A DNA stretch of 53,223 nucleotides, taken from NCBI GenBank assembly GCA_022827025.1, contig JAJDTT010000047.1, forward strand, positions 1-53,223, read 5' to 3'. The notes beneath the pieces were generated by a model. It did not search any database. It was given only the letters and a program-made list of their open reading frames with translations, and was not told the DNA's origin. The first letter of the stretch is position 1. Each line of letters begins with the position of its first letter. The position numbers and the translations under genes are program-made. The DNA is from Acidobacteriota bacterium (GTDB lineage Bacteria; Acidobacteriota; UBA6911; RPQK01; JAJDTT01). Of the stretch, positions 45,595 to 52,173 are shown one piece after another.

Positions 45595-46803
45595 CTATTC
45601 CACCAGGGAGGCGGCAACGGCGTTGGAGACGATTCCCAGCTCCCGGTCGCTGTAGGGCTTGTTGCTGAACAGGGTCATGAAGAGTCCGGTCTCGGGGTCG
45701 GCCCAGACCGAGCAGCCGGTCACCCCGTAGTGGCCGTAGGCTCGCGGCGAGACCAGGCTCCCCATGGATTGGAAGTCTCCGTTGTCCCGCAACTGCCAGC
45801 CCAGTCCCTTGGCGTAGGCGATCCGGTGGGCCGGGCTGAGACCCGGTAGCCGGGGGATGTAGTTGCTGGTCATCATCCGGACCGTGGCCGGGCTGAAGAT
45901 GCGCACGCCCCGGACCTCCCCGCCGTTCAGGAGCATCTGGAGAAACCGGGCGTAGTCCCGCACGGTGGAGAAGAGTCCGCCCCAGGGGTTGCCCAGGCGG
46001 TGGAAGTAATCGCTGTTCCAGTTGCTGGCAAATGCTGCCAGCTCGGGGGGCAGGACGCAGTCTGAGATCCGGCTGCGGTCTTCGTCGTTCCGCCCCAGGA
46101 AAGAGTCGGGCATCCCCAGGGGCCGGAAGAACTCCTTTTCCAGGAAGTCCCGGGTGGACATGCCGCTGGTTCGGCGGATCGCTTCGCTCAAGAGGAGGAA
46201 GCCGGCGTTGCAGTATTTGACTGCGGTGCCCGGCGCGAAATCGAAGGTGTTCCGTTTGTACATTTCGCGGAGGAACCGGTCCAAGGGTTGACGGGTGGCC
46301 CGGAATTCCTGGTTGCGGGGGATGGAGCCGAATCCGGAGGTGTGGGTCAACAGGTGGATGAGGCGGATTCCGTGCTGCTCTTCCGCCACTTCCGGAATGA
46401 TCTCGTGGAGGGGTTGGTCGAGTTCCAGGAGTCCCCGTTCGATCAGGAGGCAGGCGGCGCCGGCGACGATGGGCTTGGTGCAGGAGGCGATGAGGAAGAT
46501 GGTGTCGGGGCGGACCTCCGGAGCGTCGAGGGTGCCCATGCGGCCGAAGGCGCGGGGAGGGAGGATGCGGTTTCGCCGGCCGATAAAGATGGCGGCGCCG
46601 TATTCGGGGCGGGGGGACAGCATGCGTTGGACCAGGGCGTAGGCGCGGTCGAGGCTGGTGGGGTCGAGGTTGAGGGCTTGGGGATGGAAGTGGGGGTCCG
46701 GATTCGTCGCGGCCCGAAAGCGGCCGGGAGCAGAGCCCATAAAGAGTGTTCCGGATCCCATGTGGGTGAGGAAGAGGCGTCTGGTGGAAGGTTTTGGGGT
46801 CAT
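45595..46803 (-). CDS. Serine hydrolase, beta-lactamase (class C/EstB-like) family
   Basis: The predicted protein has 402 residues from the ATG at 46803, with a possible Tat-like N-terminus (STRRLFLTHMGSGTLFMGSA). The catalytic SxxK is S107-C-T-K110 (FLIASCTKPIVAGAACLLIE), the Tyr motif is Y197-C-N (GTAVKYCNAGFLLLSEAI), and the third motif appears as HYG in AYGHYGVTGCSVWADPE. This set is shared by class C beta-lactamases, DD-peptidases and EstB-type esterases. Such proteins are often secreted esterases or peptidoglycan-related enzymes; drug resistance cannot be inferred. Much longer open frames in the same region run through the repeats upstream of 46803 and are not used. Confidence 0.87.
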   Translation of the reverse strand: MTPKPSTRRLFLTHMGSGTLFMGSAPGRFRAATNPDPHFHPQALNLDPTSLDRAYALVQRMLSPRPEYGAAIFIGRRNRILPPRAFGRMGTLDAPEVRPDTIFLIASCTKPIVAGAACLLIERGLLELDQPLHEIIPEVAEEQHGIRLIHLLTHTSGFGSIPRNQEFRATRQPLDRFLREMYKRNTFDFAPGTAVKYCNAGFLLLSEAIRRTSGMSTRDFLEKEFFRPLGMPDSFLGRNDEDRSRISDCVLPPELAAFASNWNSDYFHRLGNPWGGLFSTVRDYARFLQMLLNGGEVRGVRIFSPATVRMMTSNYIPRLPGLSPAHRIAYAKGLGWQLRDNGDFQSMGSLVSPRAYGHYGVTGCSVWADPETGLFMTLFSNKPYSDRELGIVSNAVAASLVE

Positions 46804-46905: not shown

Positions 46906-47019
46906 CCACCCGCCGCTCCACGTCGCCACGCCCGGCGCCCGGCGCCCGGAAGGACGCCGATCCCGGTCGGCGACTAGAAAGTCGCCGCTCCATGTCGCCG
47001 CTCCATGTCGCCGCTCCCC
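46906..47019. repeat. Palindromic repeat cluster at the dnaE2 3' end
   Basis: Several units with the complementary form of GGAGCGGCG-CTTTC-CGCC lie here, for example GGCGACTAGAAAGTCGCCGC and repeated TCGCCGCTCCATG. The cluster ends three bases before the dnaE2 stop codon (47022). The same family forms the array at 14.7-15.0 kb and the unit at 50.12-50.19 kb. Confidence 0.7.
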
Positions 47020-47021
47020 GC

Positions 47022-50000
47022 CTATTGGAAGTCGCGGCTCTTGAGGCGGATTGAGGTTTTGTCCAGCTTGGGTCTCCAGATTTTGTCGACGACGAGGTGG
47101 GTGACTGTCTCCGCCACTTGGAGATTGCCGGTGACCCCCATGCAGGAGAGGGTCTTGGCCAGGACGGAATAGCGCTGGAAGGTCTGTTGCCAGATGACCA
47201 GGTTCACGAACCCCGTCTCGTCCTCCAGGGTCATGAAAGTGACGCCCCGTGCGGTCCCCGGGCGCTGGCGGCAGATGACCATGCCCGCGTAGCGGACGCG
47301 GCGGCCATCCGGCATCCGGTTGAGTTGGCGGGCGGTGGGCAGGCCCCAGGCGGCCAGCACGGGCCGCAGCGGTTTCAGGAGGTGGGCCCGGGAGCTGTGG
47401 CTGGTGACCCGATGGTCCCAGACGATGCTCTCCAGCCGGCTCAGAGGGGGGAACGGGGGGGACGGAGCGCGGCTGCTCAACGGCAGCCGGAGCGGTGGCC
47501 GGCCGGCGAGGCCCTGGATCTGCCAGAGGGCGCTCCGGCGGTCCAGGCCGAAGCACTCGAAGGCGCCGGCCTCGGCCAGGGTTTCCAGCTTGTCCTGGCG
47601 GAGCCCGCTCCTTCGGATGACGTCCGGGAGATCGCTGAAGGGGGACTGCCGGGCGGCCTCTTCCAACTTGTTCCAGTCCCCTTCCCCCAGCCCTTTGACG
47701 TAGCGCAGACCCATGCGGACTGCGAACTTGGAGATCCGCTCCGGAGCGGACGAAGCCGGGATCAGGCTGCAGTCCCAGCCACTTTCGAGAATGCTGACGG
47801 GATGAATCTCGACCCCATGGATCCGGGCGTCGTTGACGATGGTGGAGGGGGAGTAGAAGCCCATGGGTTGGGCGTTCAGCAGGGCGCAGGTGAATTCCGC
47901 CGGATAGTGGCACTTGAGATAGGAGGTGGCGTAGGCGATATGGGCAAAGCTGGCGGCATGGCTCTCGGGAAAGCCGTAGTCGCCGAATCCACGGATCTGC
48001 TGAAAGACGCGTTCGGCGAACTCCTCCCGGATGCCCTTCTTCACCATGCGGGACACCAGCCTTTCGTGGTGCCGCTCGATCCGTCCCGAACGCCGCCAGG
48101 CCGCCATGTCCCGCCGCAACTGGTCGGCCTCGCCCGGCGTGTAGTCGGCGGCCACCATGGCCAGTTGCATCACCTGCTCCTGGAACAGGGGGATCCCCAG
48201 GGTCTTCTTCAGGACGGGAATGAGGCAGGGGTGGGGATACTCGACCGCTTCCTCCCCTTTGCGCCGCCGCAGGTAGGGATGCACCATGCCTCCCGTGATG
48301 GGGCCGGGACGGACGATGCTGATCTCGATCACCAGGTCGTAGTAGTTGCGCGGCTTGAGGCGTCCCAGCATGGCCATCTGGGCCCGGCTCTCGATCTGGA
48401 ACACCCCCACCGTATCGGCGCGGCAGATCATATCGAAGGTGGCCGAGTCCTCCCTGGGGAGGGTGGCCAGGGAAAGGCTCAGGCGGCGGTGCCGGCGCAG
48501 AAGATCGAAGCCGAGGTGCAGGTGGGTGAGAGCGCCCAGTCCCAGCAGGTCCACCTTGAACAGGCCCGCCTGCTCCACGTCCTCCTTGTCCCACTGGATG
48601 ACGGTCCGGCCCTCCATGGAGGCGTTCTCGATGGGCACCAGGTCGTGGACGGGCCGGTGGCCCAGCAGGAAGCCTCCGGGATGGATGGAGAGATGGCGGG
48701 GGAAATCCTGGATCTCCCGCACCAGATCCACCAGGTGGCCCAGGGACGGGCTACGGGAGTCGAGTCCGGCCTGTCCCACCAGTTCCTCGCCCCAGCGCTC
48801 GTGGGACACCAGCTTGGCCAGACGGTCCAGGCTGGTGGCCGGGATCCCCAGCACCTTGCCCACTTCCCGGATGGCGGACCGGTAGCGGTAGCGGACCACG
48901 TTGGACACCATGGCGGCGCGGTCGCGCCCGTACTTCCGGTACACGTGCTGGATCACCTCTTCCCGGCGGTTGTGCTCGATGTCCAGGTCGATGTCGGGAG
49001 GCTCGGACCTCTCCCGGGACAGAAAACGCTCGAAGAGGAGGTCCACCTGGGTGGGGTCCACGTTGGTGATCCCCAGGGCGAAGCAGACGGTGGAGTTGGC
49101 GGCCGACCCCCGGCCCTGGCAGAGGATGCCGCGGCGGCGGCAGTACTCGACGATCTCGTGCATGGTCAGGAAATAGCCTTCGTACTCCAGCTCCCGGATC
49201 AGGTCCAGTTCCTTCTCCAACTGCGGGATCTGGCTCCGGAACTTCCCTCCCAGGCGGCGCTCGGCCCCTTCCAAGGTCCGCCGGCGCAGGTACTGGCTGG
49301 AGTTCAGGCCCTCCGGCAGACGCTCCAGCGGATAGCGGTAACGCAGCTCCTGGAGCGAGAAGGAGCAGCGGGCGGCCACTTGGCGGGTCCGCTCGACCGA
49401 CTCGGGATCATCGGCGAAGAGGCGGGCCAGGTCGCCCGGACTCTTCAGGGAGTGCTGGTCATTGGGCCGGATGAGGCGGCCGGCCGCGGGCAGGGTCACC
49501 CCTTCCCGGATGCAGGTCAGGACATCCTGCAGGCGTCGCCGTCCGGGACAGTGGTAGAGCACCTCCACGGCGGCCACCGTGGGCAGTCCGAACCGGTCCG
49601 CCAACTCCCGGAGCCGGACCTCCCGCAGAACCTCCTCCGCTTGGCGGTGTCTGGGAATCAGGACGTAGAGGCGATCCTGAAAAGCGGTCCGGAGCCGCTC
49701 CAGGACAGGCTCCGGTTCGGTCCGGGCGTGAGAGCCGGTTTCCGGCGGGGGGATCCCCCAGAGGGCGATCAGGCCGGGATTGTGCCGGCAGACCTCCCGC
49801 CAGCCCAGCCGGCACTCCCCCTTGGAGGAACGGAGGTGCCCGCCGGTCAGCAGGCGGCAGAGATTGCGGTAGCCCTCATGGTCCTGGACCAGCAACAGGA
49901 GCTCCGATCCGTCCCGGAGGACGATCTGGGAGCCCACGATCAGGTGGATGCCCAAGCGGCGGGCGCGGACATGGGCCCGGACGATGCCGTACACCCCGTT

Positions 50001-50117
50001 GCGGTCGGTGAGGGCCAGGGCGGGAATCCCCTGCTCCCGGCAGGCCTCCACCAATTCCTCGGGGTGGCTGGCCCCTTCCAGGAAGGAGTAGTTGCTCTTG
50101 CACCAGAGGGGGACGTA
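47022..50117 (-). CDS. dnaE2: Error-prone DNA polymerase III alpha subunit (DnaE2), start codon absent
   Basis: The predicted protein has about 1031 residues and is a C-family polymerase used in translesion synthesis and damage mutagenesis. The N-terminal PHP-like domain starts [20 protein letters not shown]; the usual HxH is WCK. Catalytic-core motifs are [40 protein letters not shown] with the two catalytic Asp, and [20 protein letters not shown] with the third. A helix-hairpin-helix region and an OB domain ([20 protein letters not shown]) follow. The frame is open from the TGA at 50193-50195, but the first in-frame ATG/GTG/TTG is at 50054, inside the conserved N-terminus. A palindromic repeat unit occupies the expected start region. 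The given 5' end is the first conserved codon. Confidence 0.88.
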
Positions 50118-50121
50118 GGGC

Positions 50122-50190
50122 TGGGGAGCGGCGGTTTCCAGCCGCCGGACTCCGGAATGACAATTTGGCGCCGAAGAACGGGCGATTGGA
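50122..50190. repeat. Palindromic repeat unit at the dnaE2 5' end
   Basis: GGAGCGGCGGTTTCCAGCCG followed by CCGGACTCCGGAATGACAAT is closely related to the unit at 14.83-14.88 kb (GGAGCGGCGTCTTTCCAGGC, then GCCGGTTCTCCAGAGTGACAATT). The hairpin GGCGG/CCGCC lies at 50130-50146. It sits at the 5' end of the dnaE2 reading frame, just upstream of the conserved N-terminal codons. Confidence 0.7.
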
Positions 50191-50206
50191 AATCACCTCC
50201 CGGCGG

Positions 50207-51190
50207 TCAGGCGAAGATATCCTGTTCGAGTTGCGCCGTCCCCGTTAACGGGCTCCGGATGGCGAACTCCGCGGCATCCTCGGCGGCCTCTTCCGCCTCC
50301 TGCTCGATCTCTTCCAGCACCGAAGCCTGGACCGCCATCTGACCCGTGAGAACGGTGCGGAACCGCGGGATGGGGTCCACCACCTGCCAGCGCTTCCTCT
50401 CCTCGCGCGATTCATAGAATCCGGCCGAGAGGGCGCTGTGGCGTTCCCAGCGCACCGTCCTGCACTCGATCAGCGTCGGCCCCCCGCCCTCGCGCGCCCG
50501 CTCCACCGCCCGTCTCGTGGTCTCGTAGACCTCGGCGATGTCGTTTCCGTCGATGGAAATTCCGGGCATGTCGAACCCTTGGGCCCGGGTCGCGATCTCG
50601 GGAACGCTCAACGATTTCTTCACCGGGACCGAAATCGCGTAGCCGTTGTTCTCGCAGACCAGCACCACCGGCACCTTCCAGAGGGCGACCATGTTCAAGG
50701 TCTCGTAGAAGGCGCCTTCACAGGAGGCCCCGTCGCCGAAGAGGCAGAGGGTCACCCGATTCGTCTTCTTCAACTGGTTGGCCAGGGCGACTCCGGAGGC
50801 GATGGGGATATGAGCCGCCACGATGGCATTGGTCCCCAGGAAGCCGATGTCGGGGTCGCAAAGGTGCATGGACCCCCCTTTGCCCTTGCAGCAACCGGTC
50901 TCCCGGCAGAGGATCTCCGCCATGGCGGCCTTGGGATCTCCGCCCCGGGCCAGGAAGGTGCCGTGTCCGCGGTAGGTGGCCAGCACCAGGTCCTCGGCGT
51001 TCAAGGCGGAAATGCAGCCCACGGAGACCGCCTCCTGGGCGATGCAGGGGTGGGTGGAACCGCTGACCAGTCCCCTGCCGGAGAGTTCCACCACCTTCTC
51101 CTCGAACTTCCGGATGTGGACCATCTGGCGATACCAGCCCAGCGCCTGTTCCGGGCTGACGGCCGCGGCGTGTTGAGCCTCGTCTGTCAT
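50207..51190 (-). CDS. TPP-dependent 2-oxoacid dehydrogenase E1 alpha subunit
   Basis: The predicted protein has 327 residues. It has the E1 alpha signature ALGWYRQMVHIRKFEEKVVE, the active-site segment YRGHGTFLARGGDPKAAMAE, GKGGSMHL, and the TPP motif GDGASCEGAFYETLNMVALW ending CENNGYAISVP. The GIS(I/V)DGNDI segment and TLIECRTVRWERHSA follow. It forms the heterotetrameric E1 with the beta subunit whose gene lies five bases upstream. Pyruvate, acetoin and branched-chain enzymes share these features, so the substrate is open. No E2 or E3 gene is in the window. Confidence 0.88.
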   Translation of the reverse strand: MTDEAQHAAAVSPEQALGWYRQMVHIRKFEEKVVELSGRGLVSGSTHPCIAQEAVSVGCISALNAEDLVLATYRGHGTFLARGGDPKAAMAEILCRETGCCKGKGGSMHLCDPDIGFLGTNAIVAAHIPIASGVALANQLKKTNRVTLCLFGDGASCEGAFYETLNMVALWKVPVVLVCENNGYAISVPVKKSLSVPEIATRAQGFDMPGISIDGNDIAEVYETTRRAVERAREGGGPTLIECRTVRWERHSALSAGFYESREERKRWQVVDPIPRFRTVLTGQMAVQASVLEEIEQEAEEAAEDAAEFAIRSPLTGTAQLEQDIFA

Positions 51191-51195
51191 GACTC

Positions 51196-52173
51196 CTATC
51201 CCTCCTCCATGAGATCCCTGATGGCCGCGGCCAACTTGTCGCGGTCCGGGAAGACCTCGTCCTGCAACGGTCCGGCGGGGATCGGCTGGTCCTTGCCGGC
51301 GACGCGGCGGATGGGGGCGACCAGGTAATCGAAGGCGCCCTCAAGAGCCACCTGTCCGATCTCGGCTCCGACGCCCGCGGTCCGGTAGGCCTCGTGGGTC
51401 ACCACCATGCGCCCGGTCTTCTTCACCGATTCGACGATGGTCTCGCCGTCCAGGGGGGCCAGGGTGCGGGGATCGATGATCTCCACGCTGATCCCCTCCT
51501 TCTCCAATTCGCCGGCGGCTTGAACCGCCTCCTGAACCATCATGGCGATGGCGACCACGGTGACGTCCGAACCCTCGCGAACGATCCGGGCGCTGCCGAA
51601 GGGCAGGCGGTATTCCTCCCCGGGCACCTCTCCCTTGGTGGCGTAGAGCCGGACATGTTCGATGAAAATGACCGGGTTGTCCTGGCGAACGGCGGTCTTC
51701 AACAGCCCCTTGGCGTCGTAGGGGGTCGACGGCATGGCGATCAGCAGTCCCGGAGTGTGCATGAACCACGACTCGAGGCTCTGGGAATGCTGGGCGCCCA
51801 GTCCCAGCTTGCTGGCGCTGGGCATCCGCAGCACCAGGGGGACCTTGACCTTGCCCCCGAAGAAATACCGCATCTTGGAGGCCTGATTCGCCACCGCGTC
51901 CAGGATCAGCGGCGAGAAGTCCATGAACTCGATCTCCACGATGGCCCGCATGCCGGCCACGGCGAGACCGATTCCGAAGCCCGCGGTGGCCGCCTCCGAA
52001 AGCGGCCCGTCCCGGACCCGGTCCTCGCCGAACTCCTCGCAGAGGCCCCGGTAGACCCCGAAGGTCCCGCCGTAGACGCCGATGTCCTGGCCCAGCAGGA
52101 CGATGTCCGGATCGCGGCGCATCTCTTCCCGAATCGCTTCGTTGATGGCCTGTGAGTAGGTGATCTCCCTCAT
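51196..52173 (-). CDS. TPP-dependent 2-oxoacid dehydrogenase E1 beta subunit
   Basis: The predicted protein has 325 residues, the usual length. Family landmarks are REITYSQAINEAIREEMRRD, VLLGQDIGVYGGTFGVYRGL, RVRDGPLSEAATAGFGIGLA, IVEIEFMDFSPLILDAVANQ, HSQSLESWFMHTPGLLIAMP and the C-terminal LEGAFDYLVAPIRRVAGKD. It pairs with the E1 alpha subunit downstream. The upstream neighbours are a small Fe-S protein (49 bases away) and a SucD-like gene, an unusual operon for this enzyme. Confidence 0.9.
   Translation of the reverse strand: MREITYSQAINEAIREEMRRDPDIVLLGQDIGVYGGTFGVYRGLCEEFGEDRVRDGPLSEAATAGFGIGLAVAGMRAIVEIEFMDFSPLILDAVANQASKMRYFFGGKVKVPLVLRMPSASKLGLGAQHSQSLESWFMHTPGLLIAMPSTPYDAKGLLKTAVRQDNPVIFIEHVRLYATKGEVPGEEYRLPFGSARIVREGSDVTVVAIAMMVQEAVQAAGELEKEGISVEIIDPRTLAPLDGETIVESVKKTGRMVVTHEAYRTAGVGAEIGQVALEGAFDYLVAPIRRVAGKDQPIPAGPLQDEVFPDRDKLAAAIRDLMEEG

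What the first reader, a model, noticed from the sequence alone, without database searches (positions are those of the whole stretch)
47022..50195. dnaE2 lacks a standard start codon; the same repeat family brackets the gene
The conserved PHP start [17 protein letters not shown] lies in an open frame with no ATG, GTG or TTG back to the stop at 50193-50195, and a palindromic repeat unit (50122-50190) sits exactly there. A cluster of related units touches the 3' end (46906-47019). A repeat insertion may have displaced the start codon. Expression would need a rare start codon (for example the CTG at 50141), a truncated start at the TTG at 50054, or be lost.
Basis: partly seen in the sequence, partly recalled or inferred. 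Interest (0 to 1): 0.58.

Follow-up and report, generated by a model that had tools for sequence, protein, structure and literature searches.

The report
Repeats moved a repair polymerase gene
A DNA-repair polymerase gene appears to have lost its normal start signal and its DNA-damage switch when short mobile repeats let the chromosome break and rejoin beside it, so the cell must make the protein in an unusual way or is losing it.

Summary
Observation confirmed: the dnaE2 frame (50192-47022, minus) is open for 1,056 codons, has no ATG/GTG/TTG before the conserved [12 protein letters not shown], and a REP/REPIN-like palindromic unit (about 50124-50197) fills exactly that place. Relatives explain why. 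dnaE2 normally ends a lexA-imuA-imuB-dnaE2 operon, its start overlapping or just after the imuB stop; 67 of 74 readable relatives have a standard start within 12 codons of the conserved block. In three same-genus genomes REPs fill that junction and the native start is gone. In the window's genome two REP-bearing junctions have exchanged partners: dnaE2 now follows a pyruvate dehydrogenase E1-alpha gene, while lexA-imuA-imuB sits on another contig before the gene that follows E1-alpha in relatives. dnaE2 has thereby lost its start, its coupling to imuB and linkage to the genome's only LexA-box match. The first 21 codons are nearly free of amino-acid change in the genus, against a truncated TTG start. 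Most likely dnaE2 is weakly translated from a non-AUG codon inside the repeat (AUC 50184-50186 behind a 9-nt Shine-Dalgarno match, or CUG 50139-50141); recent silencing is nearly as likely.

The parts
47022..50192 (-). dnaE2 (imuC) open frame, 1,056 codons plus stop, no ATG/GTG/TTG before the PHP-domain start
50193..50195 (-). in-frame TGA that closes the dnaE2 frame upstream
50124..50197 (-). REPIN-like unit: two inverted REP hairpins; lies on the rearrangement breakpoint
   Evidence: 57 matches in the genome; fold -34 kcal/mol; longest exact match to 28 other copies 24 bp
50192..50200 (-). GGAGGTGAT, 9-nt complement to the usual anti-Shine-Dalgarno, inside the repeat foot
   Evidence: -15.5 kcal/mol; this species' own 16S 3' end was not found
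50184..50186 (-). candidate AUC start, 9 nt after GGAGG
   Evidence: inference
50139..50141 (-). candidate CUG start, 8 nt after a GGAG
   Evidence: inference
50052..50054 (-). TTG, first standard start codon in frame; disfavoured
   Evidence: conservation upstream of it
46906..47019 (.). 3' REP cluster: one intact hairpin (46969-46986) and partial arms
50207..51190 (-). E1-alpha subunit gene of a pyruvate dehydrogenase-like complex, new upstream neighbour of dnaE2
51196..52173 (-). E1-beta subunit gene
45595..46791 (-). PF00144 serine hydrolase (beta-lactamase fold) region, downstream neighbour of dnaE2 also in G001 and G003

Best explanation
Shown by sequence: dnaE2 belongs to a lexA-imuA-imuB-dnaE2 operon in relatives, with its start overlapping or just after the imuB stop. 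In this genus REP-type palindromes filled the imuB-dnaE2 junction and replaced the native start. In the window's genome the REP-bearing junctions imuB|dnaE2 and E1-alpha|diaminopentanoate-dehydrogenase-like gene have swapped partners, giving E1-alpha|REPIN|dnaE2 (the window) and imuB|REP piece plus truncated group II intron|dehydrogenase (another contig). dnaE2 thus lost its start codon, its translational coupling and its linkage to the only LexA box found. Inferred: recombination or breakage at the repeats caused the exchange; dnaE2 is now transcribed, if at all, by read-through from the E1 genes and translated weakly from a non-AUG codon that the repeat supplies (AUC 50184-50186 behind GGAGGTGAT, or CUG 50139-50141). 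I give non-AUG expression about 0.45 and recent silencing about 0.4.
For: No standard start. 67 of 74 readable relatives have one within 12 codons, and in 43 of the 62 with a detected imuB it ends within 40 nt of the conserved Tyr codon. Nearest other-genus relatives start 7 codons before Tyr (L085, L092), or at an ATG overlapping the imuB stop (L101, L086, L087, L091, L094). imuB-REPs-dnaE2 in 3 of 3 same-genus genomes; imuB on another contig in the window's genome. E1-alpha, REPs, dehydrogenase in 3 of 3 same-genus genomes, imuB-dehydrogenase in the window's. One dnaE2 in the window's genome and one imuB in each of 4 genomes. LexA box AACAGACAWWTGTCTGTT at one place in each of 3 genomes and not in the window even with 3 mismatches. 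First 21 codons: 0-1 nonsynonymous changes per pair in 5 genus pairs. G000 branch: 32 nonsynonymous and 53 synonymous changes, far below neutral (p about 7e-13) and not different from G001 or G003. Y1/REP-type transposase genes in 4 of 4 genomes.
Against: No read-level data: a chimeric contig cannot be excluded, though exact matches at the breakpoint are at most 24 bp in the 28 copies compared. The selection seen on the G000 branch may predate the exchange. AUC and CUG are poor starts (recalled). The Shine-Dalgarno lies in a hairpin, and the species' 16S 3' end was not found. Candidate non-AUG codons are not shared with the three relatives. The exact exchange path is unknown: the two new junctions have the topology of recombination between direct repeats, which alone would make two circles.
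Confidence: 0.68

Rival explanations
1. dnaE2 in this species is a recently silenced gene: the exchange removed start and operon, and the open frame simply has not decayed yet.
For: No standard start; LexA linkage lost. A relative (G003) carries an 11-bp deletion that splits dnaE2 into two frames, so loss happens in the genus if that draft is right.
Against: 1,056 codons without a stop; G000 branch N/S not raised against G001 or G003 (Fisher p 0.55 and 0.22).
Confidence: 0.4
2. Assembly chimera: contig C119 joins two loci through a repeat, and the native imuB-REP-dnaE2 order exists in the cell.
For: Genome is a 318-contig draft; a REP sits on one junction and a REP piece with a group II intron fragment on the other.
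Against: Both reciprocal junctions are assembled in mid-contig; longest exact repeat at the window junction is 24 bp in 28 copies compared; the best other G000 copy of the intron fragment is 95% over 176 bp.
Confidence: 0.12
3. Translation starts at the TTG at 50054, giving a DnaE2 that lacks the first PHP strand.
For: First standard start in frame; GAGG lies 2 nt upstream.
Against: The 21 codons before it keep their amino acids (0-1 nonsynonymous changes over about 51 sites per genus pair, and 0 against L085 and L101), while synonymous changes accumulate; the family profile begins upstream of it.
Confidence: 0.07
4. A one-base sequencing error in the repeat hides an ordinary start in the neighbouring frame.
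For: GTG at 50196 and a TTG lie in the next frame.
Against: The dnaE2-side hairpin matches other genomic copies exactly over 23-24 bp; the GTG abuts its own Shine-Dalgarno; the changed gene order is not explained.
Confidence: 0.04

Closest known systems
REP/REPIN elements and REP-associated tyrosine transposases (RAYTs)
   Same: Two inverted REP hairpins with a variable spacer, dispersed, mostly between genes, RAYT-like genes in the genome; definition from passages of PMC8049555.
   Different: REPs here replace a gene start and lie on a rearrangement breakpoint; one sits inside a protein-coding frame.
Rickettsia palindromic elements (RPEs)
   Same: Palindromic repeats read through in frame as part of proteins (passages of PMC10969869); here the dnaE2 frame is stop-free across the REP-filled gap in 3 of 3 relatives and a REP encodes a PSCyt1-PSCyt2 linker in the window's genome.
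   Different: Different host phylum, and no sequence comparison was made; in the window species the repeat removes the start rather than adding an internal peptide.
LexA-controlled imuA-imuB-dnaE2 (imuC) mutasome operons
   Same: Same genes and order in relatives, LexA box over the lexA promoter.
   Different: In the window genome dnaE2 is detached from operon and LexA box; imuA is a weak family match.

Membership tests
DnaE2/ImuC error-prone polymerase | Full-length match to the family model above its curated cut-off | tested here: met
   NF004225, 1,324 bits against 939, residues 24-1056; PHP, polymerase, finger, HHH and OB domains
LexA-controlled imuA-imuB-dnaE2 operon | dnaE2 directly behind imuA-imuB and under a LexA box | tested here: not met
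   Met in 3 of 3 same-genus genomes, broken in the window's genome
REP/REPIN element | Short palindromes, many copies, mainly extragenic | tested here: met
   57 matches in G000; most of 28 sampled loci lie outside coding-like frames, with exceptions
REP/REPIN element | Two inverted REPs forming one hairpin | tested here: met
REP/REPIN element | Mobilised by a cognate RAYT | tested here: inconclusive
   Y1_Tnp hits in 4 of 4 genomes (8 hits); REPs within about 0.6 kb of 3 of the 5 hits looked at; RAYT model score 65.8, below its cut-off of 80; activity not testable
Rickettsia palindromic element (works like) | Inserted in frame within open reading frames | tested here: inconclusive
   One clear case among 28 sampled REP loci; open frame across the gap in 3 relatives, joint chance roughly 0.02 if independent, which they are not

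The most novel reading that the evidence does not exclude
The REP unit works as a portable translation start: its foot carries a strong Shine-Dalgarno (GGAGG) and its loop or arm an initiation codon (AUC in the window, TTG in G001), so genes whose own start is destroyed by repeats or rearrangement are restarted from inside the repeat with a repeat-encoded N-terminal tail. Here that would free an error-prone polymerase from SOS control and place it in a metabolic operon.
Probability: 0.08. Interest if true: 0.8.

Novelty: new variant of a known kind. Interest (0 to 1): 0.45.

Why it matters
If the contig is right, it shows small extragenic palindromes doing two things at once: erasing the translation start of a conserved gene across a genus, and serving as the joint at which an SOS mutagenesis operon was split. 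The LexA box has a single place within two mismatches in each of the three genomes searched, so dnaE2 has probably left damage control altogether. Whether such a gene is still made, and from which codon, is a direct test of non-AUG initiation on a conserved bacterial gene.

Tried and rejected
Truncated TTG start: rejected on conservation. Fusion with E1-alpha by read-through: the frames differ. Ongoing decay seen as relaxed selection: not detected, but the test is weak. LexA control carried by the E1 operon: no LexA-box match in the window with up to 3 mismatches. Polarising the second breakpoint with other-genus genomes failed: the dehydrogenase has no close match in 5 genomes tried, one 31% hit. 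Finding the species' anti-Shine-Dalgarno failed twice. The literature search for Versatilivorator found nothing; Hecht et al. 2017 on start codons is not held, so AUC/CUG efficiency is recalled. In one search the query I labelled 'bla' was translated in a wrong frame (one search shows it); it still located the region next to dnaE2 in G001 and G003, and the right frame was scanned. In the same call the 'DH' query came out empty; the gene was placed instead. In one search the row labelled 'TTG frameB' was offset by one codon and is not used.

Full report
OBSERVATION. The dnaE2 frame on the minus strand runs from 50192 to 47022; the codon before it is TGA at 50193-50195, and no ATG, GTG or TTG precedes [17 protein letters not shown]. 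Near-cognate codons in that stretch are ATC (50184-50186) and CTG (50139-50141); the first standard start is TTG (50052-50054). The protein is a full-length DnaE2-type polymerase (1,324 bits to NF004225; five Pfam domains).

THE REPEAT. The 121 bases around the junction have 57 matches in the window's own 5.3-Mb, 318-contig genome (40 of 123 candidates scored), the long ones covering about 50124-50197. Read side by side, copies are single or tandem hairpins of the type GGAGCGGCGGTTTCCAGCCGCCG, or two such hairpins in opposite orientation with a spacer of some 30-35 nt, which folds as one long hairpin. That is the REPIN layout described in PMC8049555 (passages read). Y1-transposase genes occur in 4 of 4 genomes of the genus; the one scanned scores 65.8 bits to the REP-associated transposase model, below its cut-off of 80. 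Family hairpins lie within about 0.6 kb of 3 of the 5 transposase loci that I looked at, of 8 found. So REP/REPIN-like is my reading; mobilisation by a RAYT is not shown.

WHAT RELATIVES LOOK LIKE. A scan of named genomes returned 80 dnaE2 loci. Six were dropped (five without a readable N-terminus, one at a contig start). Of the remaining 74, 67 have ATG, GTG or TTG within 12 codons of the conserved Tyr. The seven exceptions are L084 (the same contig as G001, same genus as the window), L086 and L087 (ATG overlapping the imuB stop, about 30 codons up), L102 (upstream masked), L104 (GTG overlapping the imuB stop at the Tyr position), L141 and L153 (starts 42 and 18 codons up). imuB was detected upstream in 62 of 74, ending within 40 nt of the Tyr codon in 43 of 62. 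The closest other-genus relatives read TGAACGCGAACC-ATG-ACC-GGA (L085, L092), or overlap imuB by ATGA (L101, L086, L087, L091, L094). The ancestral state is therefore a tightly coupled imuB-dnaE2 pair; such short overlaps are what translational coupling needs (abstract of PMC10666635).

THE GENUS. Three same-genus genomes keep lexA-imuA-imuB-dnaE2, but 135-292 nt of REP units separate imuB from dnaE2. The last shared bases are GCTCC(C/T)CAGCCCTAC; the ancestral ATG is gone. In G003 and G002 an in-frame ATG lies 29 and 57 codons upstream and a GTG 15 and 43 codons upstream, none with a Shine-Dalgarno match; G001 has TTGs at -74 and -65 behind GGAGG that belongs to the REP itself, and an ATG at -105 inside imuB. 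The dnaE2 frame is free of stops across the gap in 3 of 3, with chances 0.18, 0.19 and 0.51 in shuffles; the genomes are related, so this is a hint only, and in G001 all three frames are open. A REP inside a protein is tolerated elsewhere in the window's genome: at L007 it encodes the linker between PSCyt1 and PSCyt2 domains in frame, one clear case among 28 sampled loci.

THE EXCHANGE. In the window's genome the only imuB is on contig C152, behind lexA and imuA, and is followed by a REP fragment, a truncated group II intron (RF02005, 148.8 bits) and a 2,4-diaminopentanoate-dehydrogenase-like gene. In G001, G002 and G003 that dehydrogenase follows E1-alpha, with REP hairpins between. In the window E1-alpha is followed by dnaE2. 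The matching blocks meet at these points: C152 2475-8001 matches G001:C22 and 8379-13456 matches G001:C44; the same split holds for G003 (C39 and C101). Downstream of dnaE2 the PF00144 gene region is the same in the window, G001 and G003 (with a wrong-frame query; domain). The event is therefore a reciprocal change of partners at REP-bearing junctions on the lineage to this genome. The pairing (A-D plus C-B) is that of recombination between direct repeats, which by itself would split a circle; a second event must be assumed if there is one chromosome. Chimerism of the draft is unlikely, because the longest exact match of the window junction to 28 other copies is 24 bp and the intron piece has no near-identical second copy among the matches in the genome, but it is not excluded.

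CONSEQUENCES. A perfect LexA-type palindrome over a sigma-70-like promoter (my reading of the bases) precedes lexA in 4 of 4 genomes of the genus, and a close form in L086 and L087. Within two mismatches it occurs at one place in each of the three genomes searched, and not in the window with three. dnaE2 thus lost linkage to the only recognisable LexA site; other LexA sites of different sequence are not excluded.

IS THE START REGION TRANSLATED? In the 21 codons before the TTG, five genus pairs show 0 or 1 nonsynonymous change over about 51 sites, and comparisons with L085 and L101 show 0, while synonymous changes occur. That argues against the TTG as the genus-wide start. On the branch to the window's genome dnaE2 has 53 synonymous and 32 nonsynonymous changes, far fewer nonsynonymous than neutral (p about 7e-13), not different from G003 (p 0.22) or G001 (p 0.55). 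This may predate the exchange. G003 carries an 11-bp deletion that splits dnaE2, so loss does occur in the genus if that draft is right.

MECHANISM. Shown: loss of standard start, changed neighbour, loss of LexA linkage. Inferred: the exchange ran through the repeats; transcription by read-through from E1; initiation at AUC 50184-50186, 9 nt behind GGAGG in GGAGGTGAT (-15.5 kcal/mol, the strongest of the starts computed), or at CUG 50139-50141, 8 nt behind GGAG. Against: the hairpin covers these sites, the species' 16S end was not found, and such codons are weak starts (recalled). Silencing is nearly as likely.

VERDICT. A real and unusual junction, best filed as a new variant of REP-driven genome change. 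The parts are known; their combination at the start of an SOS polymerase gene, with conserved coding but no standard start, is what is of interest. I searched print only narrowly and make no claim that nothing like it is published.

Noticed in passing
L164:2310-2480 (G000:C152): A 165-bp dispersed repeat present in dozens of similar (about 86-95%) copies in G000 and G001 and also in G003; no Rfam match at gathering threshold.
   Followed up: partly
L164:7992-8340 (G000:C152): Truncated group II intron 5' part, with what looks like the start of its reverse transcriptase frame, wedged into a REP between imuB and the dehydrogenase gene.
   Followed up: partly
L062:4290-4310 (G003:C39): dnaE2 of G003 is split by an 11-bp deletion near codon 630; pseudogene or draft error.
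   Followed up: partly
L007:1501-1533 (G000:C68): A REP copy encodes, in frame, the linker between PSCyt1 and PSCyt2 domains.
   Followed up: yes
G000:C152:5218-5235, G001:C22:65939-65956, G003:C39:49246-49263: The LexA-type box has a single place within two mismatches in each genome, suggesting a regulon that may consist of this operon alone.
   Followed up: partly
G001:C55:8337-12983: Second, 86-88% similar copy of the E1-alpha to dehydrogenase region in G001, perhaps a second strain in that draft.
   Followed up: no
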